In this document: piece by piece, positions 36,016 through 52,697 of the stretch
Numbering within the stretch: position 1 is the first letter of the stretch
Layout: the number at the start of each line of letters is the position of its first letter
NCBI GenBank assembly: GCA_958295785.1
Contig: OY282377.1
Location: 4,280,896-4,344,895, forward strand
Direction of reading: 5' to 3'
Length of the DNA: 64,000 nucleotides
From: an uncultured Latescibacterota bacterium
Lineage (GTDB): Bacteria > Latescibacterota > UBA2968
Position numbers and translations under genes: made by a program
Notes under the pieces: generated by a model
The model's input: only the letters and a program-made list of their open reading frames with translations
The model's database searches: none
What the model was told of the DNA's origin: nothing

Positions 36016-39000
36016 CTAAAGGGGCACCGCCCCTGCGGTTCCTTTTTTCACCTGCCTCTCTATCCACTGATCCCCAAATAGTTCCGCTTGTTTTAGAACG
36101 GTCCGCGTCGCTTTTTTTTCCCGATCTGGCGGGTACCCGTATTTGCGGAGGGTGCGTTTGACCAAAACGCGGAGTTGCGCCCGCACGGTTTCGCGCATCG
36201 TCCAGTCGATAGTGATGTTGTTCCGCACGGTTTTGACCAATGCGCGGGCGATGGCGCAGAGGGTTTTGTCGCCCAAAATCTGAACCGCGCTGTCGTTGAT
36301 TTCCAGCGCGTCGTAAAAGGCCAATTCGTCGTCACAAAGGCCCAAGGCTTCGCCGCGACGGTCGGCTTCTCGCATGTCCCGCGCGAGCAGGATCAGTTCT
36401 TCGATGATCTGCGCCGCCTCAATGGCGCGGTTCTGATACCGGCGGAGGGTTCGCGCCAGCATCTCGGCGAAGGAGCGCGCTTGGACGACATTCTTGCGGC
36501 GGCGGGTGGCGAGTTCGTCCCCGAGCAGTTTTTGCAACAACTCGATGGCGAGGTTGCGTTGCGGCATGCCCCGCACCTCGGCGAGGAACTCGTCGGAGAG
36601 GATCGAGATATCGGGCTTCTCCAGCCCCGCGGCGGCGAAAATATCGACCACTTCTTCCGGCGCGACTGCGCGGTCGATAATCTGGCGCACGGCGTGTTCT
36701 GCATCTTCGGCAGAACGGGGAGCCGAAGACGTGCGTTTGTCCAACGCGGCGCGCACGGTCTGAAAAAATCCCACGTCATCCCTGATACGCAGCGCGTCTT
36801 CATGGGGTACGGCCAGCGCGAAGGCAGGCGAAAGGGCGCGCACGGCTTCGATCAAACGCGCTTTGCCGTTCTCTTGCGCGAGGATATGTTCTTGGGCCGC
36901 GGGCAAAAGGCCGACTTTTCGCGCAGGCGTGCCCCCGCGCCACGCGGAGCGGTCAAACCCGTGAAACAGGGCGCAACAGATGTCGTACTTCTCCCGCATC
37001 GCCGCGACGGCCGCGCCCTGATCCAACTTCACGCTGCCCGTGCCGCCGCTCTCGGTATAGGTCGCCATGGCCAATTTCAGTTCCGTAGCCAGCCCGAGGT
37101 AGTCCACCACCAAGCCGCCGGGTTTGTCCCTAAACACGCGGTTGACTCGGGCAATGGCCTGCATCAGCCCGTGCCCGCGCATCGGTTTATCCACATACAT
37201 CGCGTGTAGAGACGGGGCGTCAAAGCCCGTGAGCCACATGTCCCGAACCAGCGCGATCTGCAAGGGGTCATCGGGGTTGCGAAATCGGCGGGCCAATTGC
37301 TCGCGCTGTCGTTTGTTGCGAATGTGCCGTTGCCAGTTCGCGCCATCCGCCGCAGAGCCGGTCATGACGACCTTGATGGCCCCCTCGTCGTCCGCGTCGG
37401 CGTGCCATTCGGGCCGCAGGGCGATCAGCTTTTCGTAGAGCGAGACGCAGATGCGCCGGCTCATACACACCACCAGTGCTTTGCCCGGCAAGACCTCCTG
37501 CCGCCTTTCAAAATGCCCGACAATGTCGCAGGCGATCATGTCCAACCGCTCGTCTGCGCCGACAATGGCCTCGAGTTGCGCCCACTTGGTTTTCAACTGC
37601 TCTTTGCGCGCCCACTCCTCGCCTTCGGTGGCCTCTTCAAATTCTGGGTCGATGCGCGGGCGCACGCGCTCGTCCAACGCCAATTTCGCCTGCCGGCTTT
37701 CGTAATAAATGGGCACGGTGGCCCCATCTTCTACGGCGCGTTGGATGTCGTAAATGCTGATGTAGTCGCCGAATACGGCCCGCGTGTTGGCGTCGCCCCG
37801 CTCGATGGGCGTGCCGGTAAACCCGATGAACGAGGCGTTGGGGAGGGCGTCGCGCATCTGCCCGGCGAATCCATCCACAAAGTCGTACTGGCTGCGGTGC
37901 GCTTCGTCTGCGATGACGATGATGTTGCGCCGGTTTGAGAGAATCGGGTGCCGGTTTTCTTTTTCAAAAAATTTCTGGATGGTGGTGAAGACCACGCCGC
38001 CGGACGCCACCGAGAGTTTTTGACGCAAGTCCGCCCGGCTGTCCGCTTGCACCGGCGGCTGGCGCAACAAGTCCCGACAGCGGGCGAAGTTGGCGAAGAG
38101 TTGGTCGTCCAAATCATTGCGGTCCGTGAGGACGACGAGGGTCGGGTTTTTCATTGCCGGCGCGCGGATGACGCGCCCGGCATAGAAGACCATCGTCAGG
38201 CTTTTGCCCGATCCCTGCGTGTGCCACACCACGCCGATGCGCCGGTCGCCGGGTTCGCCACCCGGTTGTGGGCCCGCAGCGTATCGCCCGGCCGTCTCGG
38301 CTGCACGCTCTCCGCGCCGAAGTTCCGCCGCGCGCAGGGTTTCCGCGACTGCGACTTGCACCGCGTGGAACTGGTGATAGCCCGCCATTTTCTTTGCGAT
38401 CACGCCGCCGCTGTCTTCAAATGCGATAAAGCCGCACACGAGCGCGAGGAAGCGTTGGGGCGTGCAGACGCCTTCTATCATCACTTGGAGTTCGGGGATA
38501 TTCCCGGCGGCCAATTTATCGCCGCAGATGGTGCGCCAAGGTTTGAACCACTCGCGCCCGGCAGTGAGCGTGCCGATGCGCGCCTCCAATCCGTCTGAGA
38601 TGATGAGCACCTCGTTCATCGAGAACAATGCGGGCAGTTCCGCTTTGTAAGTCTGAAGTTGTTTCCACGCCGCCCAAATCGTCGCGTCTTCGTCCGCCGG
38701 GTTTTTCAACTCGACGATGCCGAGGGGCAAGCCGTTGACGAACAGCGCGATGTCGAGGCGGCGCGTATTTCCGTTTTCAACCACGGTGAATTGGTTGACC
38801 GCGAGGCAGTCGTTGTTGGCGGGATCGTCGAAATCCATGACCCGTGCTCGCGCCCCTCGGAGGGCGCCATCCGCCGTGCGGTATTCCACAGTGACGCCGT
38901 CCACGATCAGGCGATGGAAAGCGCGATTGCGGGCCTCGAGCGTCGCGCCTTCGGGCCGCATCAACCGCCGCAAAGCGTCATCTAAAGCACCGTCCGGCAG

Positions 39001-39183
39001 TTCCGGGTTCAGGCGGTCAAGGGCATTGCGAAGACGACCCTTGAGCACCACCTGCCCGAAATCATCCCGCTCGGATGTGGGCGCGCCAGGGGCGAGGTCC
39101 GCGCCGCGGGCGATTTGCCAGTTCGCGGCAGAAAGCCATTCCAAAGCGGCGCGTTCAACGGTGGCTTCGGAGAAGGTGGTCAT
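36016..39183 (-). CDS. hsdR: Type I restriction endonuclease subunit R
   Basis: 1,055 residues. The N-terminal nuclease domain has [20 protein letters not shown], i.e. D-x13-ExK. The helicase part follows with Walker [27 protein letters not shown] as motif [10 protein letters not shown] as motif III, and [20 protein letters not shown] then [11 protein letters not shown] as motifs V-VI. The extended C-terminal region that contacts HsdM is present. ATG 39183 lies 8 bases after the preceding gene. The last codons (GTAGAVPL) and the stop are encoded by a REP palindrome, so the native C-terminus may have been replaced. It cuts unmethylated DNA in complex with HsdM and HsdS. Confidence 0.93.
36019..36042. 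repeat. REP-like palindrome at the hsdR 3' end
   Basis: AGGGGCACCGCCCCTGCGG lies across the hsdR stop and in front of the multihaem cytochrome gene. It is one member of the dispersed GGGGCACCGCCCC palindrome group. Confidence 0.6.
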
Positions 39184-39191
39184 GGTGTTCC

Positions 39192-40133
39192 TCAGGCTTT
39201 CGGAAATAGGGACGAGTTGCGGGAGTTGCGAAAAAATTTTGCCACTTTCAACAGAATGTCCGCAGATTGCTCAGAAAACCGAAAGTGCGACTCAGGCTCG
39301 TTAAAGGGCCGAACATCGGCCCAAAAAATGTCTATTTCAATCCCCCGTGCCATCATCGCCAACGCGGCCACCGAGTCGCACAAATTGGCACTGACGCCAT
39401 GTTGTACCGCCTTTGCAAAAAGTTTGAACGCATCGCCCGCGATGGTCTCGGCAATGGCTGTGTTGGCGTGGTTGAGGGCGCGTGCCAAGGTGTATGTGGC
39501 GCGGCGAGGGAAAGGCGCGTACGAATCGCCTCCAAAATTTTCTCGCACCCCCATGCCCGCAGGCCCTGGCGATTTCTGATTTTTTGGGGATATCGCGCCA
39601 ACCCCCACGGGCACCGGCGCGTGCAAGGTGAGCGCGTAGCCCTCGCAATAGCTCGGCACCAAGCGCACCTCATCCAGATATTTCGCCACATGCGAACTCA
39701 TTCTACCGTGATAGACCGCACGCGGTTTCTCAGCCGCACGAGCCGCAGCAACCAACAGGTTGTAAGCCTCATCGAGCAACCCCGCGCTTTGCCGCAATGA
39801 AAGCGATTTTCCGGCCGCGCCATTGACCGACCGCATCCGTACCACATCCGCCCCCGCGGCGGACAGGTCGTAGAACACGTCGAGTTGAGAGCGTTCCTCA
39901 ACCTCGGCGAGAATTGCGACTGCTTCGGCCATGCATTCGACGTGGTCGCCAAGGGTGTCGCGTGATGGAGCTAAAATCTCCCAATTTCGCCCGCCATGTT
40001 CTTTGGTGTAGATCGTGGCTGGCCGGTTCCCCCAAGGGCCTTCGTCGTTCCACCCACGCGAAATCAGGTAGGAACGGAGGTCGCCAACTGACAGCGATGA
40101 CAACGCTTCCCGGTCGCGTATCTGAACTTTCAT
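39192..40133 (-). CDS. Hypothetical protein in the type I R-M operon
   Basis: 313 residues from ATG 40133, with GGAGGAG just upstream. The longer frame reads into IS110 DNA. It begins [20 protein letters not shown], with SWGN-like [17 protein letters not shown] nearby, and ends in a basic [14 protein letters not shown]. No membrane segment is seen, and I recognise no domain or catalytic motif. It sits 8 bases ahead of hsdR and originally followed the DUF4365 gene by about 20 bases, before IS110 entered. Its consistent operon position suggests a role with the R-M system; that is inference. Confidence 0.7.
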
Positions 40134-40142
40134 AGTGCTCCT

Positions 40143-41428
40143 CCTTGTATCTTGCGAGAAAGGGTTAATTAGGTGTTGCACCGTCGTATCGAGACAAGGC
40201 ATCTTAATGCCCGGCTCGGGGAAGGCCGATCCTCCTTGAAGGCGATGACCTTTTAGAAAAGATAGGCCCCCCGACCGCCGGGTCTATACCGAAGAGTATC
40301 TAAGTCCATTGAGGCTGCATAGACAAGGTCGGTAGGCTTGGCGTGAAAAGGTCGGGACTCGAGCGAAGACCGTATCCCTTAGAACCCCCTCATCACAGGA
40401 GGCCACGATGTCGAAATCCCACCCCTCTTTTGCAGGCATTGATGTCAGTGCCCGTGCGTTGCGCGTTGCCCTGTCAAGCGCTGGGCAAGCCGTCAAGCAA
40501 GCGACCTTTGACAACGATCCCCAGGCACACAAGCGTTTGCTGAAGTGGCTCACCAAGGGCGGACGGACGGTCTGTGTCTGCCTTGAAGCCACCGGACTTT
40601 ATAGCCTGGAGGTGGCTTTGGCCTTGCATCATCATCGCCGCACGCACGTCATGGTCGTCAATCCCAAAGCGATGCACAATGACGCGCAAGCCCGCATGCA
40701 ACGGGCGAAGACAGACGCGATGGATGCGTTGTTGATCCTCGATGATGCCCAGCGCATGCCCTTTGTGGCTTGGCAACCCCCGAGCGAGCACGTCCTGCAA
40801 CTGCAAGCCCTGACACGCCGGATGGAGCAACTCAAACAAGCGATCATCCGCGAGCGCAACCGATCCCACGCACAGGGCTACCCCATCCGCAGCACACACC
40901 TCATCGCACGCGATATTCAGGGGCATATTCGACACCTCAAACGCCGAATCCAGTACCTGCAAGCCCAAGCCCTTGACTTGGTCGAGCAGGACTTGACCCT
41001 CAAGCGCGCTTATCAACGCCTCTGCTCTGTCCGGGGTATCGCACAAACCAGTGCCTGGCGGCTCTTGGACGAACTGGCACGCCTGCCACAAGATATGAAA
41101 CCGTCCCAAGGGGTCGCACACGCAGGGCTTGACCCAAAACCGAAACAATCGGGCACAGCAAATCCGCCCAGACGCATCTCAAAAACCGGGAATAAGTACC
41201 TCCGACATGCCCTCTATATGCCTGCGTGGGTGGCCTGCAGGCATGAAGTCCATGTCAAAGCCTTCTATGACAAACTCATGGCCAGAGGCAAAAAGCCCTT
41301 ACAAGCCATCGTTGCCGTGATGCGAAAGGTGCTCCATTCGATCTGGGGGATGTTGCGGCACGACCAAGATTTTGAGGGCGAAAAATTCTATCGCATCACC
41401 TCTCAAACCCCTTGACCTTTAAGAGAGT
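40143..41428 (+). mobile_element. IS110-family element, copy 2
   Basis: Same limits as copy 1, shifted by exactly 23,999 bases. It lies between the DUF4365 stop and the Shine-Dalgarno region of the 313-residue gene. Its leader (40143-40407) is the second copy of the candidate bridge RNA and differs from copy 1 at a few positions (one substitution breaks a GATGC stem to AATGC). The transposase reads opposite to the operon. Confidence 0.87.
40408..41415 (+). CDS. IS110-family transposase (DEDD recombinase)
   Basis: 335 residues, intact, with the same FAGIDVSARALRVALS, VCLEATGLYS, AKTDAMDALLIL and RISKTGNKYLRHALY blocks as copy 1. Differences are few (for example IDVS for VDVS, LVEQ for WVKQ, ACRHEV for AYRHEV). 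CAGGAGG lies upstream of the ATG. Confidence 0.92.
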   Translation: MSKSHPSFAGIDVSARALRVALSSAGQAVKQATFDNDPQAHKRLLKWLTKGGRTVCVCLEATGLYSLEVALALHHHRRTHVMVVNPKAMHNDAQARMQRAKTDAMDALLILDDAQRMPFVAWQPPSEHVLQLQALTRRMEQLKQAIIRERNRSHAQGYPIRSTHLIARDIQGHIRHLKRRIQYLQAQALDLVEQDLTLKRAYQRLCSVRGIAQTSAWRLLDELARLPQDMKPSQGVAHAGLDPKPKQSGTANPPRRISKTGNKYLRHALYMPAWVACRHEVHVKAFYDKLMARGKKPLQAIVAVMRKVLHSIWGMLRHDQDFEGEKFYRITSQTP

Positions 41429-41435
41429 ATCTTTC

Positions 41436-41903
41436 TTACTTAACCTTGTTCATGAGCGCGTGGAGTTGGGGGCCGTTAAACATGTTACTTAAAGGCAAGC
41501 GCACCGTGATGTTGGAAGTGTTTGTTACAGTTGACCTGCCTTCAAGAGAAACCCAATAGCCGCAACGGCGCAGACAAAGCTCTTCTTCAGTTTGGTTCAC
41601 CCATTGATTGGGATCCCGAGGCATCAAAACAACGATCAAAATGCGCGGAGTTCGCGTGGAGTTTCTCAGTTCGTTGTAGTTCTTAATTGGCAGAGGAAAG
41701 TGTAAGTTGCCGCTCCTCACAATATCTTGCGCCGTCGCCTTGGCCTGAAATTCTATTCTCGGACGCGAGCCAAAATCGGACATCAGGATCCCATCCAAGC
41801 TGTCTGTGTCTGGTTCTGGCCTGACCATCTGATAACCAGCACTTGCTGCCACTGCTCTAATATATGCCAAAGAGAACTGCTCCATCTGTAAATTCGGCGT
41901 CAT
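41436..41903 (-). CDS. DUF4365-domain protein
   Basis: 155 residues. The pattern LAYIRAVAASAGYQMVRPEP, DSLDGILMSDFGSRPRIEFQ then AKAT, FPLPIKNYNELRNS, PRILIVVLMP and YWVSLEG fits DUF4365, a family often found in defence islands. The D...IEFQAK part (acidic, then QxK) resembles a PD-(D/E)XK nuclease core, so a nuclease role is plausible but unproven. GGAAG lies upstream of ATG 41903. It is in the type I operon between the TPR genes and the 313-residue gene, now followed by IS110. Confidence 0.65.
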   Translation of the reverse strand: MTPNLQMEQFSLAYIRAVAASAGYQMVRPEPDTDSLDGILMSDFGSRPRIEFQAKATAQDIVRSGNLHFPLPIKNYNELRNSTRTPRILIVVLMPRDPNQWVNQTEEELCLRRCGYWVSLEGRSTVTNTSNITVRLPLSNMFNGPQLHALMNKVK

Positions 41904-41989: not shown

Positions 41990-42139
41990 TCAATCTCCTT
42001 TTAGATAAGCATTTTGCCCTAATGCTAACGTTAGCACCAGCGCGGCACGCAGGGTAGTGAGGGGGCGCGATTCAACATTAACCGAAACGCCCTTTGAAAG
42101 CAAGACGGGGAGCACTCCCTCAACAAAGGTGAAAGCCAT
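41990..42139 (-). pseudogene. hsdS C-terminal tail remnant, copy 2 (truncated)
   Basis: An ATG-initiated frame that begins MAFTFVEGVLPVLLSKGVSV NVES like the tail at 43653-43823. It diverges after TLRAAL and ends at 41990-41992 in unrelated residues. It shows that the TPR + tail unit was duplicated and then broken here. The rest of 41904-42150 holds no further gene. Confidence 0.55.
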
Positions 42140-42150
42140 CCTCACTGAAC

Positions 42151-43653
42151 TTAGGGATTGTCGAGGTCTCTAAGTTGCTGTTCCGCCTCGGTCGCCAAAT
42201 CTTCGTTGCCAGCGTTTCGGAACAAATTGATTGCCGTATCAAAATCCTGCCGGGCCTCGTTCACCCGGCCTAACTTCTTGTTTGTTATACCTCGGTTATA
42301 GTAGGCTCCGGCATAGTTTGGGTTTAGCTGTATCGCCGTGTTGTAGTCCGCTATTGCGGCTTCTGATTGACCGAGATTGATTTTCGCGTGGCCTCGGTTG
42401 TTGTAGGCTTCGGCATCGTTTGGGTCTATTCGTATCGCTTCGTCGTAATCTGCTATTGCGGCTTCAGATTGACCGAGGCTGTTTTTCGCGTGGCCTCGGT
42501 TGTTGTAGGCTTCGGCATCGTTTGGGTCTATTCGTATCGCTTCGTCGTAATCTGCTATTGCGGCTTCAGATTGACCGAGGCTGTTTTTCGCGTGGCCTCG
42601 GTTATAGTAGGCTTTGGCATAGTTTGGGTCTATTCGTATCGCTTCGTCGTAATCTGCTATTGCGGCTTCATATTGACCGAGGCTGTCTTTCGCGTGGCCT
42701 CGGTTATAGTAGGCAACGGCATCGTTTGGGTCTATTCGTATCGCTTCGTCGTAATCTGCTATTGCGGCTTCAGATTGACCGAGGCTGTTTTTCGCGCTAC
42801 CCCGATTGTTGTAGGCTTCGGCAAAGTCCGGATTTAATCGGATCGCCTGAGTGTAAGCATTTCTCGCCGCTTCAAAATCGTCTCGCTCCCCGTATAGATA
42901 GCCAGCAGAAAACCACGCCTGGGATCTAAGTTCTGTGTTGGTTTTTTCTACGACATTGGCAATGGAACGCCACTTTTCGATAGCTTCCTCAATTTTTTCT
43001 TCCCGTTGAAGCAGGACAGCGGCGGCTATCGCTTGGCCTATCGGGGATGACTCGGGATCCTCTTGGACACGTTTCGCAGTCTCGTCGGCTTTCTTTGGAT
43101 CATTACGAACAACCTCGGCATTCAATCCTTTCACAAGCGAATCAGCCTCATCGCGTTTCGTTTTGATCTCCTCGACATAGCTTTGGGCTTCGTCCGCATG
43201 TTTCTTGGAGTTTGCCACATTCTGCCGGGCTTCGGCCTCAATTTCGTGAAATCTCTTAAAGCCGATATAGCCCAAAAAGGCAACGATAACACTGAGTGCC
43301 GTCAAGAAGAGGCCAATAACGGTGAGCCCACTTTGGAGCATATTTGAATAGTCATTCAAAAGTTCTCGCCTGAGGTCGAGCGTCTTTGCTCGGTCATTCA
43401 AAATTTCTCGCCTGAGTTCGTTAATGTGGTGCCGGATTTCAACAGCGGTGGCGGCATCCAAACCCGTTTTGTTCGACTCAACCTTTGGTTGCCCGTGCTC
43501 GGGTTCATTGCCGCGTGGCGGATTTTTGGGGCTGGTCGTGTCGGTAGCGGTTGGCTTTGCCGGTTGCGCGAGAAGAGGCATTGAAGCCGCTGTTGTTACC
43601 GCAAAAGTCAAGATAATGGCAACGATCTTATGACGATTTCGTGAAGACCACAT
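42151..43653 (-). CDS. Membrane-anchored TPR protein 2
   Basis: 500 residues from ATG 43653, preceded by GGGAGG. Layout: signal or anchor (residues 8-28, IVAIILTFAVTTAASMPLLA), proline/threonine linker, a second membrane helix (LTVIGLFLTALSVIVAFLGY), a coiled coil (EAEARQNVANSKKHADEAQS), then five nearly identical 34-residue TPRs of the form AAIADYDEAIRIDPN plus two diverged ones. The repeats should face the cytoplasm or periplasm as a protein-binding scaffold. The N-terminal ~130 residues are almost identical to TPR protein 1. The start overlaps the stop of the hsdS-tail ORF (TAATG). I know no function for this family in type I systems. Confidence 0.75.
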   Translation of the reverse strand: MWSSRNRHKIVAIILTFAVTTAASMPLLAQPAKPTATDTTSPKNPPRGNEPEHGQPKVESNKTGLDAATAVEIRHHINELRREILNDRAKTLDLRRELLNDYSNMLQSGLTVIGLFLTALSVIVAFLGYIGFKRFHEIEAEARQNVANSKKHADEAQSYVEEIKTKRDEADSLVKGLNAEVVRNDPKKADETAKRVQEDPESSPIGQAIAAAVLLQREEKIEEAIEKWRSIANVVEKTNTELRSQAWFSAGYLYGERDDFEAARNAYTQAIRLNPDFAEAYNNRGSAKNSLGQSEAAIADYDEAIRIDPNDAVAYYNRGHAKDSLGQYEAAIADYDEAIRIDPNYAKAYYNRGHAKNSLGQSEAAIADYDEAIRIDPNDAEAYNNRGHAKNSLGQSEAAIADYDEAIRIDPNDAEAYNNRGHAKINLGQSEAAIADYNTAIQLNPNYAGAYYNRGITNKKLGRVNEARQDFDTAINLFRNAGNEDLATEAEQQLRDLDNP

Positions 43654-43823
43654 TATACGATCCTCCCAATTTGTCTTGTGGCGTCGCGGAGACGGACTTC
43701 TCCACTGATGAGTTTCGGCAACAGCGCGGCACGCAGGGTAGCGAGGGCGCACGATTCAACATTAACCGAAACGCCCTTTGAAAGCAAGACGGGGAGCACT
43801 CCCTCAACAAAGGTGAAAGCCAT
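43653..43823 (-). pseudogene. hsdS C-terminal tail as a 56-codon ORF
   Basis: ATG 43823 to TAA 43653 gives MAFTFVEGVLPVLLSKGVSV, then NVESCALATLRAALLPKLIS, then GEVRLRDATRQIGRIV. This is homologous to the last ~50 residues of hsdS (VNIESYNLATLRDTLLPKLI, SGEVRLHNATRQIERSI). It is fused to TPR gene 2 by the same TAATG junction that joins full hsdS to TPR gene 1. It is probably a duplication scar, though a translated mini-HsdS tail cannot be excluded. Confidence 0.7.
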
Positions 43824-43834
43824 CCTCACCGAAC

Positions 43835-46018
43835 TTAGGGATTATCAAGATCTCTAAGTTGCTGTTCCGCCTTGGTCGCCAATTCTTCTTTGCCAGCGTT
43901 TCGGAACAAATTGATTGCCGTATAAAAATCCTGCCGGGCCTCGTTCACCCGGCCTAACTCCTTGTTTATTATACCTCGGTGGTTATAGGCTTCGGCAAAG
44001 TTTGGGTCTATTCGTATCGCTTCGTCGTAATCTGCTATTGCGGCTTCATATTGACCGAGATTGATATTCGCGCTACCCCGGTTGTTGTAGGTAGCGGCAT
44101 CGTTTGGGGTTAGCTGTATCGCCTTGTTGTAGTCCGCTAGTGCGGCTTCTGATTGACCGAGATTGATATTCGCGTTGCCCCGGTTGTTGTAGGCACCGGC
44201 AAAGTTTGGGTCTATTCGTATCGCTTCGTCGTAGTCCGCTATTGCGGCTTCAGATTGACCGAGGCTGTTTTTCGCGTTACCTCGGTTGTTGTAGGCTTCG
44301 GCATCGTTTGGGGTTAGCTGTATCGCTTCGTCGTAATCTGCTATTGCGGCTTCAGGTTGACCGAGATTGATTTTCGCGTGGCCTCGGTGGTTGTAGGCAC
44401 CGGCAAATTTTGGGTCTATTCGTATCGCTTCGTCGTAATCTGCTATTGCGGCTTCAGGTTGACCGAGATTGATTTTCGCGTTGCCTCGGTTGTTGTAGGC
44501 ACCGGCAAAGTTTGGGTTTAGCTGTATCGCCGTGTTGTAGTCCGCTATTGCGGCTTCAAATTGACCGAGGCTGTTTTTCGCGTTGCCTCGGTTGTTGTAG
44601 GCAGCGGCAAATTTTGGGTCTATTCGTATCGCTTCGTCGTAGTCCGCTATTGCGGCTTCAGATTGACCGAGGCTGTTTTTCGCGCTACCCCGATTGTTGT
44701 AGGCAGCGGCAAAGTTTGGGTTTAGCTGTATCGCCGTGTTGTAGTCCGCTATTGCGGCTCCAAATTGACCGAGGCTGTTTTTCGCGCTACCCCGATTGTT
44801 GTAGGCAGCGGCAAAGTTTGGGTTTAGCTGTATCGCCGTGTTGTAGTCCGCTATTGCGGCTCCAAATTGACCGAGGCTGTCTTGCGCGCTACCTCGGTTG
44901 TTGTAGGCATCGGTATAATTTGGGTCTATTCGTATCGCTTCGTCGTAATCTGCTATTGCGGCTTCATATTGACCGAGATTGATTTTCGCGTGGCCTCGGT
45001 TATAGTAGGTATCGGTATAATTTGGGTCTATTCGTATCGCTTCGTCGTAATCTGCTATTGCGGCTTCATATTGACCGAGGCTGTCTTTCGCGTGGCCTCG
45101 GTTATAGTAAGCTCCGGCAAATTTTGGGTCTATTCGTATCGCTTCGTCGTAATCTGCTATTGCGGCTTCATATTGACCGAGGCTGTATTCCGCACTACCC
45201 CGATTGTTGTAGGCTTCGGCATAGTCCGGATTTAATCGGATCGCCTGAGTGTAAGCATTTCTCGCCGCTTCAAAATCGTCTCGCTCCCCGTATAGATAGC
45301 CAGCGGAAAACCACGCCTGGGATCCAAGTTCTGTGTTGGTTTCTTCTACGACATTGGCAATGGAACGCCACTTTTCGATAGCTTCCTCAAATTTTTCTTC
45401 CCGTTGAAGCAGGACAGCGGTAGCTATCGCTTGGTCTATCGGGGATGACTCGGGATTCTTTTGGACACGTTCCACAGTCTCACCGGCTTTCTTCGGATCA
45501 TTATCAACAGCCTCGGCATTCAATTCTTTCACATCTTTCACAAGCGAATCAGCCTCATCGCGTTTCGTTTTGATCTCCTCGACATAGCTTTGGGCGTCGT
45601 CCGCATGTTTCTTGGAGTTTGCCACATTTTGCCGGGCTTCGGCCTCAATTTTTTTAAATCTATTAAAGCCGATATAGCCTAAAAAGACAGCGATAACACT
45701 GAGTGCCGTCAAGAAGATGGAAACAGCGTCGGGCCACCAGTCGACCGTCTTTGCTCGGTCATTCAAACGTTCTCGCCTGAGTTCGTTAAAGTAGTGCCGG
45801 ATTTCAACAGCGGTGGCGGCATCCAAACCCGTTTTGTTCGACTCAACCTTTGGTTGCCCGTGCTCGGGTTCATTGCCGCGTGGCGGATTTTTGGGGCTGG
45901 TCGTGTCGGTAGCGGTTGGCTTTGCCGGTTGCGCGAGAAGAGGCATTGAAGCCGCTGTTGTTACCGCAAAAGTCAAGATAATGGCAACGATCTTATGACG
46001 ATTTCGTGAAAACCACAT
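43835..46018 (-). CDS. Membrane-anchored TPR protein 1
   Basis: 727 residues from ATG 46018, coupled to hsdS (TAATG, with GAGAGGAG upstream). Same layout as TPR protein 2: N-terminal hydrophobic segment, P/T-rich linker, membrane helix (AVSIFLTALSVIAVFLGYIG), coiled coil (IEAEARQNVANSKKHADDAQ), then TPRs. Here there are twelve near-identical 34-residue repeats plus one diverged repeat at each end, against five in protein 2. The 102-bp DNA repeats are so alike that recombination between them is the obvious cause of the length difference. The role is unknown; placement after hsdS suggests it tethers or regulates the R-M complex, or senses phage at the membrane (inference). Confidence 0.75.
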   Translation of the reverse strand: MWFSRNRHKIVAIILTFAVTTAASMPLLAQPAKPTATDTTSPKNPPRGNEPEHGQPKVESNKTGLDAATAVEIRHYFNELRRERLNDRAKTVDWWPDAVSIFLTALSVIAVFLGYIGFNRFKKIEAEARQNVANSKKHADDAQSYVEEIKTKRDEADSLVKDVKELNAEAVDNDPKKAGETVERVQKNPESSPIDQAIATAVLLQREEKFEEAIEKWRSIANVVEETNTELGSQAWFSAGYLYGERDDFEAARNAYTQAIRLNPDYAEAYNNRGSAEYSLGQYEAAIADYDEAIRIDPKFAGAYYNRGHAKDSLGQYEAAIADYDEAIRIDPNYTDTYYNRGHAKINLGQYEAAIADYDEAIRIDPNYTDAYNNRGSAQDSLGQFGAAIADYNTAIQLNPNFAAAYNNRGSAKNSLGQFGAAIADYNTAIQLNPNFAAAYNNRGSAKNSLGQSEAAIADYDEAIRIDPKFAAAYNNRGNAKNSLGQFEAAIADYNTAIQLNPNFAGAYNNRGNAKINLGQPEAAIADYDEAIRIDPKFAGAYNHRGHAKINLGQPEAAIADYDEAIQLTPNDAEAYNNRGNAKNSLGQSEAAIADYDEAIRIDPNFAGAYNNRGNANINLGQSEAALADYNKAIQLTPNDAATYNNRGSANINLGQYEAAIADYDEAIRIDPNFAEAYNHRGIINKELGRVNEARQDFYTAINLFRNAGKEELATKAEQQLRDLDNP

Positions 46019-47262
46019 TATATGCTCCTCTCAATTTGTCTTGTGGCGTTGTGGAGACGGACTTCTCCACTGATGAGTTTCGGCAACAGCGTATCTCGCA
46101 GGGTGGCGAGATTGTACGATTCAATGTTAACCAAAATTTGTTTTGCAAGCAAGTTGGAAAACGTTTCATCAACCGCAGAAAGCAAGGCCGGGGCGGGAAT
46201 TACGCATTTCGCCTCGCTGAGGTGCTGGCGTTTGATATGCCCCATTGTTGTCGCTTTGTCCGCGGCGATGCGTTGAAATTCCGGGAGATGGACTTCGGTG
46301 AAGTGCCGGTAGAACCATTTGGGGTATTGCTCTGACGTTACTTTGAACAGGTGCTGGTTGAGGGCGGCCTTGCCCCCACACCATACCTTTACCAACAGAC
46401 TGCCCGACCATGAAAAGATAACGTCGCCATCGTCAATAATGCACTCAGGCGTTATGTCCGCTTTAGCCCATTCGCCACTGTCTGCTTTGTTAGTCCGCAA
46501 CTGCGCGATTTTTACGACGGGCAGACGTTCCTCATTTTCTTTTGGTCGGAATTTCTGTAAGGCAAGGCCATTTCTAAATTTGGCAATCTCATCGAGGGCC
46601 TTTATCTCCCACCCCTCCGGCACCGCTCCCAATTCCGAGTCCACGAGCCGATCCGGGAACAGGTCGTAGAGTTCGGCGGGCATGCCGGGTAGGGACTCGC
46701 CGCGACGCCAGCGGCCTTTCATTTTGGCGCGCACCGGCTCGAAATCTATGAACCACGCTTTGAAGAGGGCGCGCGCCATTTCTTCGAGCGTTTCGTTCAT
46801 TCGCCGGTTCAACGCGATCTTGTCGTCCAGCGTGCCGAGGATGTGGGCGATGCGCCGTTGCTCGGGTTCTGGCGGCACTTGTAACTCCCGTGCATGTGCG
46901 TCATTGCGATTGAGTCCAGGCACGGCACTATCCGAGTTCATGTGCTCCAAACCGAGAATTTTGAGGGCGTAATACTTGAACCTGACGAGCGCGGCGTCGC
47001 TACCAGAAACAAAAAATGTTGTATCAATAGGCCAGCACGGAATCGGCGAGTAATGAACCGCTCCCACCGTTCCTTTGCGCCCGATAATCACGCTCGGCCC
47101 ATCAGTCCATGCCGTATCGTGCCAGCCGACAATGCCGTTAGAACCGAATACTGGCACCTGCCCTGCCAGGCGCTTGCTTGCCGTTAGGCCCTTGCCGTAG
47201 GTGAACGGCGCAAACTCACCCACGGTTGTCGTCTGCCACTCCCTCCCCTCTCTATCGGTCAT
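46018..47262 (-). CDS. hsdS: Type I restriction-modification specificity subunit S
   Basis: 414 residues from ATG 47262, one base after the AlbA_2 gene stop. Two target-recognition domains alternate with conserved helices. The first TRD begins WQTTTVGEFAPFTYGKGLTA and ends with VPPEPEQRRIAHILGTLDDK, the coiled-coil spacer. The second begins PEGWEIKALDEIAKFRNGLA and ends KRQHLSEAKCVIPAPALLSA; the final helix is ATLRDTLLPKLISGEVRL. It sets the DNA sequence read by the complex. The C-terminal ~50 residues are duplicated downstream at 43653-43823 and 41990-42139. Confidence 0.9.
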   Translation of the reverse strand: MTDREGREWQTTTVGEFAPFTYGKGLTASKRLAGQVPVFGSNGIVGWHDTAWTDGPSVIIGRKGTVGAVHYSPIPCWPIDTTFFVSGSDAALVRFKYYALKILGLEHMNSDSAVPGLNRNDAHARELQVPPEPEQRRIAHILGTLDDKIALNRRMNETLEEMARALFKAWFIDFEPVRAKMKGRWRRGESLPGMPAELYDLFPDRLVDSELGAVPEGWEIKALDEIAKFRNGLALQKFRPKENEERLPVVKIAQLRTNKADSGEWAKADITPECIIDDGDVIFSWSGSLLVKVWCGGKAALNQHLFKVTSEQYPKWFYRHFTEVHLPEFQRIAADKATTMGHIKRQHLSEAKCVIPAPALLSAVDETFSNLLAKQILVNIESYNLATLRDTLLPKLISGEVRLHNATRQIERSI

Positions 47263-49447: not shown

Positions 49448-49524
49448 GGCATCGGCGGAATCAACGCCTGCCAGTCGAGGTTCTCAGGGGGAAATTGCCC
49501 CGCGTGGTCATGCACCCTTGCCAT
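49448..49524 (-). pseudogene. Fic-family protein N-terminal fragment
   Basis: ATG 49524 overlaps the hsdM stop (TGATG). About 26 codons remain: [20 protein letters not shown] then LIPPM. FPP-x-LDW-x-x-LIP is the start of the Fic_N domain of Fic/DOC-type AMP-transferases, normally 350-380 residues. R1 copy e replaces everything after it. Fic genes are common inside type I R-M operons, which supports the reading; the short length limits certainty. Confidence 0.55.
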
Positions 49525-51065
49525 CAACGCGCTCCAAATCCCAATGTTTTCAGATTTTTTTCGATGAGGCCATCCAGGCGCGTGCTTTCTGTTTGCTGAT
49601 CGCGCCACTGCGCGGCGAGGCGATTCATCTTTGCTGCGAACGGTTCGCCATCGTCCTTGGGCGCTTCCGCGCCCACATAGCGGCCGGGGGTGAGCACATA
49701 GCCGTGCCGGGCGATTTCCGCTTTTGGGGCACTGCGGCAAAAACCGGGCACATCGGCGTAAGTGCCCTTCTCGCCGCGCCATGCGTGGTACGTATCGGCG
49801 ATGCGGGCGATCTCGTCATCGGTCAATTCTCGGTTGGTGCGATCCACCAGGCGGCCCATCTGGCGGGCGTCGATGAACAAGGTCTCGCCGCGGCGGTCGC
49901 GGAATTTGCCTCCCTTTCGGTCGCGGGCGAGAAACCACAGGCAGGCCGGTATTGACGTGGATCTGAACAACTGACCGGGCAGGGCGACCATGCAATCCAC
50001 CAGATCGTCTTCTATGATATGGCGGCGGATCGCGCCCTCTGCGGATGGGTTGGACGACATCGATCCATTGGCGAGGACGAAACCGGCGATGCCCGCAGGC
50101 GCCAAGTGATAGACCATGTGTTGCATCCATGCGAAATTGGCATTGCCCTTGGGCGGTATGCCGTATTGCCAGCGGGGATCGTCCAGGAGCCGTTCGCCGC
50201 CCCAGTCGGAAACATTGAACGGGGGATTCGCCAAAATGTAGTCGGCGCGCAGGTCCGGATAGCGGTCGTTGTGAAAGGCGTCACCGTGCGCGATTTGGCC
50301 CTCAATGCCGCGAATCGCCAAGTTCATCTTTGCCAGACGCCAAGTGGTGTAATTGGACTCCTGCCCATAGATGGAAATGTCGGCCTTGGTGCCTGTGCGT
50401 CCGCCATTGCCGTTCCCGGTGGCGTGTGCGTTGATAAACTCGACCGATTGCACGAACATACCGGACGAGCCGCAACACGGGTCATAGACCCGCCCGTTGT
50501 AGGGCTTTAACATGGCGACGAGCAGGCGGACCACGCCGCGAGGCGTGTAGAACTCGCCGCCTTTGCGCCCTTCGGCCAAAGCGAACTGACCGAGGAAGTA
50601 TTCGTACACTTGGCCCAACACATCCCGAGCGCGAGCGTCTGCGTCGCCAACCCTGATTTCGCCGATGAGGTCGATGACTTGCCCCAAGCGGATTTGATCC
50701 AACGCCTGTCGGGCGTAGTCCTTGGGCAACACATCTTTCAATGCCGGGTTGTCGCGCTCAATCGCCGCCATGGCCGCATCGACCATACAGCCGATAGCGG
50801 GTTGTTTGGCCGAGGCGCGCAACCGCTCCCAACGCGCTTCGGTCGGCACCCAGAAAATATTTTGTGCGCGGTACTCGTCCGGGTCTTCGGGGTCGGCCAA
50901 GTCATCGCACTCGAGTTGCATGTGCGTCTCCTCGAAAGCGTCGGAGATGTACTTCAGAAATATGAGACCGAGGATGACGTGCTTGTACTCGGCGGCGTCC
51001 ATGCTGCCCCGCAGCGCGTCCGCCATTTGCCACAGTTCGGATTCGCCAACAGCATGATCTGGCAT
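49524..51065 (-). CDS. hsdM: Type I restriction-modification methyltransferase subunit M
   Basis: 513 residues from ATG 51065 with GGAGG upstream. The HsdM_N helical domain ([20 protein letters not shown]) leads into the AdoMet domain: [20 protein letters not shown], motif [11 protein letters not shown], and motif [13 protein letters not shown] for N6-adenine methylation. The terminal [13 protein letters not shown] is complete. It is the first gene of the operon and is divergent from the ATPase gene at 51300, so the 234-base gap 51066-51299 must hold both promoters; no clear -35/-10 box can be named there. It methylates the host sites defined by HsdS. Confidence 0.93.
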
Positions 51066-51299: not shown

Positions 51300-52697
51300 A
51301 TGAAAATACGCATCAAAAACCTCGGAATCTTAAAGCAGGCGGAATTTTCGCTCGGCGATTTGACCATCATCTGCGGTGAAAATAACACGGGCAAAACGTA
51401 TACGACTTACGCGCTGTATGATTTCTTAAAATCTTGGCACGAACTTATTCATGTTCCGATAAGCGATGACCAGATCCAAAATTCGATTAAAGATGGGGTC
51501 CTCAATATCGGATTGGCACAATATGTCAAAAAAGCCGATCAGATGCTCGCGGAGGCGTGCGGGAAGTACGAGGATAAACTGGACGAGGTTTTTGCAGCAC
51601 CCGAAGGCACGTTTGATAACAGTGAATTTCAAATTCAGGTAAAAGTTCCCGATGACATTTTACATAAAGAAATGACCGTAAACACGCCGTTCATTACCTT
51701 TTTAAAGAGAACGGGGAGTGAAGAACTGGTGGTTACTTTTGAGGAAAAAAAAGAACAAAAAAATGGGAATTTCTTTATTCCGGGCATTCAAAAAGCCGCA
51801 TATATAGAAATGTTCATGGGTTTGATTATCAGTAGTGCTATTTTTCGCGATTCTTTTCCCAGGCCCTTTATCGCTTCAGCCGAGCGTACAGGTGCAGCAA
51901 TTTTTCGCAGGGAATTGAATTTTGCTCGCAACCGCCTGCTTGACGAAATAGCCCAAGCAGACAAAAAAATTGATCCGAGACAGTTGCTACTCAAAGAGTA
52001 CCAAAATTACCCTTCGCCGATAGAAGCCAATGTGGAATTTACGCGCCAACTTGAAGATGTTGCAAAAAGAAACAGCTTTATCACCAAAGAACACCCGGAA
52101 GTGTTGGAAGATTTTGCCGATATGATTGGTGGGGATTACAGCCTGCCACAAAATGACCAACTCTACTATAAACCCAAAGGGACGCAGATTAGGTTGACGA
52201 TGGTTGAGAGTTCCAGTGCGGTGCGTTCATTGCTAGATATGGGTTTTTATCTGCGCCATGTCGCCCAAAAGGGGGACCTGCTGATGGTAGATGAGCCAGA
52301 GTTAAACCTTCATCCGGCAAACCAACGCCGCATTGCAAGGCTGTTTGCGCGTCTGGTGAATGTGGGGGTTAAAGTCTTTATCACCACCCACAGCGATTAC
52401 ATCGTCAAAGAACTGAATACCCTCATCATGCTCAATGGCGACAAGCCACACTTAAAAAGAATTGCCGAAGAAAATGGCTATCGGGACGCCGAGTTGCTCA
52501 GGGCCGATCAAGTCAAGGTATATATGGCTCAAGAGGCATTGATGCCATTAGAAGAAGGGCAAAAGAGACGCAGGAGAGGTTACACACTCGTGGCGGCTGA
52601 GATCGACCCCGAACTCGGCATTGAGGCCCCCAGCTTTGACGAGACGATTAATGACATGAACAAGATTCAGGAAGACATTATTTGGGGAGCGGAGTAA
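51300..52697 (+). CDS. AAA/ABC-type ATPase (OLD-like), first gene of a two-gene cassette
   Basis: 465 residues with AGGTAAAAAAATG giving a strong GGAGG site. The N-terminus KIRIKNLGILKQAEFSLGDL leads to Walker A GENNTGKTY at residues 26-34. Walker B is DLLMVDEPELNLHPANQRRI and the switch histidine is in FITTHSDYIVKEL, as in ABC-type ATPases of the RecF/OLD/SMC kind. The middle ~200 residues are insertion-rich. No TOPRIM nuclease domain is fused, unlike OLD proteins. The stop lies 5 bases before the next gene, so the two form a cassette. Its base composition is lower in GC than the hsd genes, which hints at separate acquisition. Confidence 0.8.
   Translation: MKIRIKNLGILKQAEFSLGDLTIICGENNTGKTYTTYALYDFLKSWHELIHVPISDDQIQNSIKDGVLNIGLAQYVKKADQMLAEACGKYEDKLDEVFAAPEGTFDNSEFQIQVKVPDDILHKEMTVNTPFITFLKRTGSEELVVTFEEKKEQKNGNFFIPGIQKAAYIEMFMGLIISSAIFRDSFPRPFIASAERTGAAIFRRELNFARNRLLDEIAQADKKIDPRQLLLKEYQNYPSPIEANVEFTRQLEDVAKRNSFITKEHPEVLEDFADMIGGDYSLPQNDQLYYKPKGTQIRLTMVESSSAVRSLLDMGFYLRHVAQKGDLLMVDEPELNLHPANQRRIARLFARLVNVGVKVFITTHSDYIVKELNTLIMLNGDKPHLKRIAEENGYRDAELLRADQVKVYMAQEALMPLEEGQKRRRRGYTLVAAEIDPELGIEAPSFDETINDMNKIQEDIIWGAE

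What the first reader, a model, noticed from the sequence alone, without database searches (positions are those of the whole stretch)
41990..47262. hsdS-coupled TPR membrane proteins in a tandem array with hsdS-tail scars
Full hsdS is joined to TPR gene 1 by a TAATG overlap. After TPR gene 1 comes a 56-codon ORF equal to the hsdS C-terminal tail, joined to TPR gene 2 by the same TAATG, and a third, broken tail follows TPR gene 2. So the repeated unit is [hsdS tail + TPR gene]. The TPR products have a signal/anchor, a membrane helix, a coiled coil and a TPR array. I know of no described type I R-M component with this build; a membrane-tethered partner of the restriction complex or a phage sensor is an inference.
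Basis: partly seen in the sequence, partly recalled or inferred. Interest (0 to 1): 0.75.

Follow-up and report, generated by a model that had tools for sequence, protein, structure and literature searches.

The report
Membrane TPR genes riding behind hsdS
Behind the gene that gives a DNA-restriction enzyme its target specificity, this sponge-symbiont-like bacterium carries two membrane-anchored repeat proteins that look like swappable antiviral cargo, each joined to a copied tail-end of the specificity gene; the same "tail plus defence gene" junction recurs in other bacteria, which suggests a way in which defence genes are stacked.

Summary
HsdS (47262-46018) overlaps TPR1 by TAATG; a 58-codon hsdS tail precedes TPR2 by the same overlap; a third tail is broken. 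"Equal" is too strong: tail2 matches hsdS at 90-93% only over the last 60 nt. The products are two-TM proteins with a 98-residue helix and a TPR solenoid. Relatives (window plus 31 loci in named genomes, about 80 Poribacteria loci) show that the hsdS link recurs but is not obligatory: an R-M specificity gene lies within 5 kb in 11 of 20 non-Poribacteria loci and next door (intact or as a tail) in 18 of 80 Poribacteria loci, including 1-nt overlaps with type ISP enzymes, a second R-M class. At the same place other members replace the membrane part with SEFIR/TIR or another effector-like domain, and hsdS tails also precede SIR2, Qat and Dsr2-like genes. So TPR1/TPR2 are probably anti-phage cargo (membrane-anchored effectors with a TPR sensor/scaffold) coupled to R-M specificity genes, not a subunit of the restriction enzyme. 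Cargo between hsdS and hsdR (PrrC, DarTG2) is known; this TPR family there and the recurrent "specificity-tail + cargo" junction appear undescribed. The biochemical action is inference.

The parts
46018..47262 (-). hsdS, type I specificity subunit, 414 aa; last codons carry the TPR1 ribosome-binding site (gagaggag)
   Evidence: Pfam Methylase_S E 2.6e-21; PADLOC Specificity_I E 1.4e-99; junction
43835..46018 (-). TPR gene 1, 727 aa: signal anchor 10-28, TM 98-116, long helix 67-164, pre-TPR region, 13 TPR units of 34 aa, conserved C-terminal cap
   Evidence: TPR_1 E 1.2e-128; model; TM scan; repeat units 73-95% nt identity
43653..43829 (-). hsdS tail 2: 58-codon ORF, joined to TPR2 by TAATG, carries the TPR2 ribosome-binding site (gggagga)
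   Evidence: tail HMM 62 bits, E 1.9e-17
42151..43653 (-). TPR gene 2, 500 aa, same build with about 7 repeats; N-terminus 97-100% nt identical to TPR1 over the first 240 nt
41990..42145 (-). hsdS tail 3, broken after about 118 nt; next gene (PDC-M02A) starts 87 nt downstream
42023..42036 (.). 14-bp perfect palindrome TGCTAACGTTAGCA at the break of tail 3, only copy in the window
41436..41903 (-). PDC-M02A candidate defence gene (DUF4365), cargo behind tail 3
   Evidence: Pfam DUF4365 E 5.2e-19; PADLOC PDC-M02A E 1.2e-52
40408..41415 (+). transposase-like ORF (IS110 type, judged by eye) between PDC-M02A and PDC-M02B
   Evidence: ORF; family from reading only
39192..40202 (-). PDC-M02B candidate defence gene
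   Evidence: PADLOC E 1.7e-76
36016..39183 (-). hsdR, type I restriction subunit, 1055 aa
47264..49012 (-). AlbA_2/schlafen plus HATPase_c_4 protein, part of this type I locus family (64-76% identical in related loci)
49524..51065 (-). hsdM, type I methyltransferase, 513 aa

Best explanation
TPR1 and TPR2 are tandem copies of a membrane-anchored member of a modular TPR family that is carried as anti-phage cargo in the slot between hsdS and hsdR. Shown by sequence: a swappable N-terminus (two TM helices here; SEFIR/TIR or another effector-like domain in relatives at the same position) joined through a conserved pre-TPR region to an array of near-identical TPRs; translation coupled to the R-M specificity gene, whose last codons hold the cargo gene's ribosome-binding site. 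Inferred: the cytosolic TPR array senses an infection cue (possibly an attack on the R-M machinery) or builds an assembly, and the long trans-membrane helix passes this to the membrane part, which stops the cell or the phage at the membrane. The tails are left by recombination at the conserved 3' end of the specificity gene: duplication or cassette gain adds a new [tail + cargo], a new hsdS allele replaces the old one, and the old tail stays because it carries the cargo's ribosome-binding site.
For: Swappable N-termini: the homologue L022/L044 is bSEFIR (PADLOC E 1.7e-71; TIR_2 E 6e-21) with the same pre-TPR and TPR; L020_5 matches a TIR effector model (E 1.2e-9). Location: 11 of 20 non-Poribacteria loci within 5 kb of a specificity gene; in the window's class 5 of 10 TPR loci within 10 kb of an hsdM against 5 of 57 TIR loci (Fisher P 0.005) and 0.8% of the genome. 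Coupling: overlaps with hsdS in the window, L028, L029, L046/L142, and 1-nt overlaps with type ISP genes. Same slot elsewhere holds defence genes: AriAB-like (PARIS) and AbiP2 directly coupled to hsdS, SIR2 PDC-S65, HEC-01A. Tails precede cargo: TM-TPR, SIR2, Dsr2-like, QatA, PDC-M02A, PDC-M24A; in L144 two 99-aa tails with the same breakpoint precede a Qat system and a TPR gene. In Poribacteria, 16 of 20 R-M-coupled members have two TM segments against 5 of 67 uncoupled (not corrected for shared ancestry).
Against: No member of the family has been tested here or, as far as found, elsewhere. Most Poribacteria members lie away from R-M genes. The counts are not independent: the type I loci belong to one related family (hsdM 60-77% identical) and the type ISP-coupled loci share neighbours, so they may be one ancestral event. 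Of roughly 520 Type_ISP_C genes in 83 Poribacteria genomes at most 12 have the TPR gene. The TM part could be a plain anchor. Defence genes cluster anyway, so linkage alone does not prove a shared function.
Confidence: 0.55

Rival explanations
1. R-M guard of the PrrC/PARIS kind: TPR1/TPR2 are held silent by the HsdS-containing complex and act when a phage inhibits it.
For: Same slot as prrC in ecoprrI (embedded in a type IC locus and activated when EcoprrI is inhibited, PMC12707154); an AriAB-like gene sits in that slot, coupled to hsdS, in L063; coupling to the specificity gene of two R-M classes.
Against: TPR genes persist behind bare tails without the full specificity gene (L059, L145, L147, L165) and in loci without R-M; an unguarded strict guard would be harmful or useless there.
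Confidence: 0.22
2. Membrane tether or structural partner that places the restriction complex at the site of DNA entry.
For: Translation coupling to hsdS, cytosolic TPR scaffold, membrane anchor.
Against: Members at the same place have SEFIR or another effector-like domain instead of the TM part; the family also pairs with type ISP enzymes and stands alone.
Confidence: 0.1
3. Passive hitch-hiking: an ordinary envelope TPR protein caught in a defence island, its tails mere scars of locus decay.
For: Many family members, above all in Poribacteria, have no R-M neighbour; broken tails and partial genes show decay.
Against: Enrichment beside R-M above TIR genes and background; overlaps with the specificity gene in unrelated phyla and two R-M classes; N-terminal defence effectors in homologues.
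Confidence: 0.13
4. The tails are silent hsdS cassettes for switching specificity, as in phase-variable type I loci.
For: Duplicated hsdS sequences in type I loci can switch specificity by recombination (PMC7394358, listed).
Against: The window tails are 51-58 codons, hold no target-recognition domain and are direct, not inverted; tails also precede non-TPR cargo and type ISP-linked genes.
Confidence: 0.02

Closest known systems
PrrC anticodon nuclease in the EcoprrI type IC locus (PMC12707154)
   Same: Accessory anti-phage gene embedded in a type I R-M locus (between hsdS and hsdR by general knowledge).
   Different: PrrC is a soluble ABC-like tRNase; TPR1/2 are two-TM TPR proteins without nuclease domain, and dependence on R-M is untested.
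DarTG2 embedded between hsdS and hsdR, RRDM island (PMC12255303)
   Same: Defence cargo in the same slot; the authors call it a potential recombination hotspot.
   Different: Toxin-antitoxin cargo; hsdS-tail scars are not mentioned in the passages read.
bSEFIR (PADLOC PDLC03957)
   Same: The homologue L022/L044, at the same place in a sister type I locus, is bSEFIR over residues 46-279 (E 1.7e-71) followed by the same pre-TPR/TPR part.
   Different: TPR1/2 have TM helices instead of SEFIR and do not match the bSEFIR model.
Diversifying conflict systems with superstructure-forming repeats (PMC7159879)
   Same: Variable N-terminal effector or membrane segment joined to TPR or other repeats.
   Different: Those systems centre on vWA-MoxR, STAND or GTPase modules; here the partner is an R-M specificity gene.
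PARIS (AriA/AriB)
   Same: An AriAB-like gene is hsdS-coupled cargo in the same type I family (L063).
   Different: Unrelated protein; only the slot is shared.

Membership tests
Type I R-M system (the locus) | hsdM, hsdS and hsdR with their domains | tested here: met
   HsdM_N, N6_Mtase, Methylase_S, HSDR_N, SWI2_SNF2 and T1RH-like_C over cut-off
Type I R-M subunit (TPR1/TPR2) | Obligate presence with the enzyme | tested here: not met
   Members without R-M neighbour and members beside type ISP genes
PrrC-like R-M guard | Accessory gene between hsdS and hsdR | tested here: met
   Window order hsdS-TPR1-TPR2-M02A-M02B-hsdR
PrrC-like R-M guard | ABC-ATPase plus anticodon nuclease domains | tested here: not met
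   Only TPR-type families found in TPR1/2
PrrC-like R-M guard | Activated when the R-M enzyme is inhibited | not testable with these tools
   needs phage or Ocr experiments
bSEFIR | SEFIR/TIR domain | tested here: not met
   absent from TPR1/2; present in the homologue L022
Phase-variable hsdS cassette | Extra hsdS copies carry target-recognition domains | tested here: not met
   tails of 51-58 codons match only the last ~51 positions of hsdS
Modular TPR family defined here | Conserved pre-TPR region (..IDxAIA.A..LQ...EAIEKW.SIA...AWFS.GYL) before the TPR array | tested here: met
   A1 alignment and HMM; 13-row alignment A3

The most novel reading that the evidence does not exclude
The 3' end of R-M specificity genes (hsdS, and the type ISP recognition domain) works as a recombination port: exchangeable cassettes [specificity tail + defence cargo] are added there by homologous recombination between tails. 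Each addition restores the specificity reading frame and supplies the cargo's ribosome-binding site, so defence genes pile up behind one R-M gene, much as cassettes do in an integron but without an integrase. For: full hsdS plus extra tails in the window, L037, L047, L028 and L057; tails of the same cargo (TM-TPR in L037 and L059, 89% over 45 nt) are more alike than each is to the resident hsdS (71% in L037).
Probability: 0.3. Interest if true: 0.8.

Novelty: new variant of a known kind. Interest (0 to 1): 0.6.

Why it matters
Defence genes are known to cluster, and the slot between hsdS and hsdR is a recognised spot for cargo, but how they get there without visible integrases is open. Specificity-gene tails in front of unrelated defence genes would mark past insertion points, give a sequence tag to find new defence genes, and make the growth of defence islands testable in the laboratory. 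The TPR family adds a membrane-anchored candidate defence protein whose relatives carry a SEFIR domain at the same position.

Tried and rejected
A single-sequence scan of genome contigs found nothing; an alignment was needed. Plasmid and phage collections held no relative of the TPR N-terminus. The fold search of the TPR1 model returned only generic TPR superhelices (designed CTPR, O-GlcNAc transferase), hence no functional hint. The model of the 'VIAPIG' domain was too poor to use (pLDDT 42); its TIR-effector assignment rests on an HMM match only. The idea that coupling is universal for type ISP was rejected: about 520 ISP genes, at most 12 with the TPR gene. An assembly artefact was rejected because the copies differ. 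A silent specificity cassette was rejected for lack of target-recognition sequence. A conserved non-R-M upstream partner was looked for: the largest group has 5 members against 18 specificity genes or tails. Seven of 87 Poribacteria loci were not read (batch not fetched).

Full report
What is there. On the minus strand a complete type I R-M locus runs hsdM (51065-49524), an AlbA/HATPase gene (49012-47264), hsdS (47262-46018), TPR1 (46018-43835), hsdS tail 2 (43829-43653), TPR2 (43653-42151), broken tail 3 (42145-41990), PDC-M02A (41903-41436), a transposase-like ORF on the other strand (40408-41415), PDC-M02B (40202-39192) and hsdR (39183-36016). The TAATG junctions are as reported. The genome is one contig of 5.66 Mb; its genus mates G004, G006 and G008 appear in named collections as Latescibacterota/Latescibacteria MAGs (loci L044, L037, L047), and the related loci come from MAGs of many phyla. 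That these are sponge symbionts is general knowledge of such lineages, not tested here.

The tails. Compared in register with the TPR start, hsdS and tail 2 are 90-93% identical over the last 60 nt, 83% at 60-90, 70% at 90-120 and 57% at 120-150, while the first 240 nt of the two TPR genes are 97-100% identical; tail 2 and tail 3 are 97-100% identical over their first 80 nt and lose similarity after about 118 nt. The simplest history is a tandem duplication of [tail + TPR] next to an older hsdS, followed by replacement of the hsdS allele with a breakpoint in its conserved 3' end. The tails hold the ribosome-binding site of the following gene.

The TPR proteins. Both have a basic N-terminus, a hydrophobic segment 10-28, a 65-80 residue linker rich in P, T and S, a second hydrophobic segment (98-116 in TPR1) followed by a net positive charge in TPR1, and 34-residue TPR units with 73-97% nt identity among units. 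AlphaFold2 gives one continuous helix 67-164 and a confident TPR solenoid from 193; the first 66 residues are not modelled. Cytosolic TPRs are the likely topology (inference).

Relatives. A 266-residue probe found 9 of 100 genomes; an alignment (A1) found 31 loci in named genome contigs and 95 hits in 50 of 83 genomes of a Poribacteria class, of which 80 loci were read. In the 20 non-Poribacteria loci (window included) 11 have an R-M specificity gene within 5 kb: window, L026, L027, L028, L029, L030, L032, L037, L039, L044, L047. In Poribacteria 18 of 80 TPR genes follow a specificity gene or its tail directly: 9 behind type ISP genes, 3 behind ISP tails (154, 154 and 60 aa), 5 behind hsdS, 1 behind a 99-aa hsdS tail. 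The ISP-coupled loci share neighbours and probably descend from one event. In the window's class, 5 of 10 TPR loci lie within 10 kb of an hsdM against 5 of 57 TIR loci and 0.8% of the genome.

Module swapping and the slot. In sister type I loci the same pre-TPR/TPR part carries SEFIR/TIR (L022/L044; bSEFIR E 1.7e-71) or a domain matching a TIR effector model (L020, L023; E 1.2e-9 for L020) instead of TM helices. Other cargo of the slot: SIR2 PDC-S65, an AriAB-like gene (L063) and AbiP2 (L060), both directly coupled to hsdS, HEC-01A (L027), PDC-M24A and M02 (L028).

Tails elsewhere. Nineteen tail matches lie outside full specificity genes; some are the same locus held twice or two parts of one tail. 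They sit just upstream of TM-TPR (L037, L048/L145, L052/L165, L059, L144, L147, window), SIR2 (L037, L047), PDC-M02A (window), a PDC-M24A-like gene (L028), an unassigned gene (L057) and QatA (L144). An orphan tail abuts a Dsr2-like fragment (L061; found with a looser threshold). Five loci have a full hsdS and additional tails (window, L028, L037, L047, L057), which truncation alone cannot give. Tails of the same cargo resemble each other more than the resident hsdS (89% against 71% for TM-TPR in L037; 80% against 73% for SIR2), but over only 45 nt.

Mechanism. Shown: build, coupling, module swapping, recurrence. Inferred: a membrane-directed defence effector with a TPR sensor/scaffold. Whether it guards the R-M enzyme, as PrrC does (PMC12707154), is open; survival of TPR genes behind bare tails argues for at least partial independence. 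DarTG2 in the same slot and the description of that slot as a potential recombination hotspot are published (PMC12255303), so the location itself is not new. The literature search covered open-licence PMC papers only and found no description of hsdS-tail junctions before defence genes; absence there is weak evidence.

Noticed in passing
window 51300-52697 (+): AAA ATPase next to hsdM matching PDC-M47A (E 7e-202) and PD-T4-4_A (E 1.1e-157): another candidate defence gene on the opposite strand.
   Followed up: no
window 40408-41415 (+): Transposase-like ORF (IS110 type by eye) lies between PDC-M02A and PDC-M02B, splitting a candidate two-gene defence system.
   Followed up: no
window 42023-42036: Unique 14-bp perfect palindrome exactly where tail 3 loses homology to hsdS.
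   Followed up: partly
L144 10423-3545 (-): hsdS tail (99 aa), then a QatA gene (E 4.6e-109) with three further genes in Qat-like order, then a second 99-aa hsdS tail and a TPR gene: both tails start at the same hsdS position.
   Followed up: partly
L058 9756-9875 (-), own genome 2156755-2156874: A separate hsdS tail in a 130-aa open frame in the window's own genome, near an ORF with an hsdS match on the other strand.
   Followed up: no
L061 944-432 (-): Orphan hsdS tail directly before a Dsr2-like N-terminal fragment, with no R-M gene seen in the 11-kb contig.
   Followed up: partly
L018, L035, L144: KAP-type NTPases (PDC-S20, PifA-like, QatA) recur near TPR-family genes.
   Followed up: no
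L017 9123-9842 (-), L144 2781-3527 (-): Small proteins of similar sequence (239 and 248 aa, no Pfam match for the first) flank the TPR gene in two phyla; possible partner.
   Followed up: no
window 46018-45221 against 43653-42820: TPR1 and TPR2 N-termini differ by 33 non-synonymous against 5 synonymous codons: relaxed or diversifying change after duplication.
   Followed up: partly
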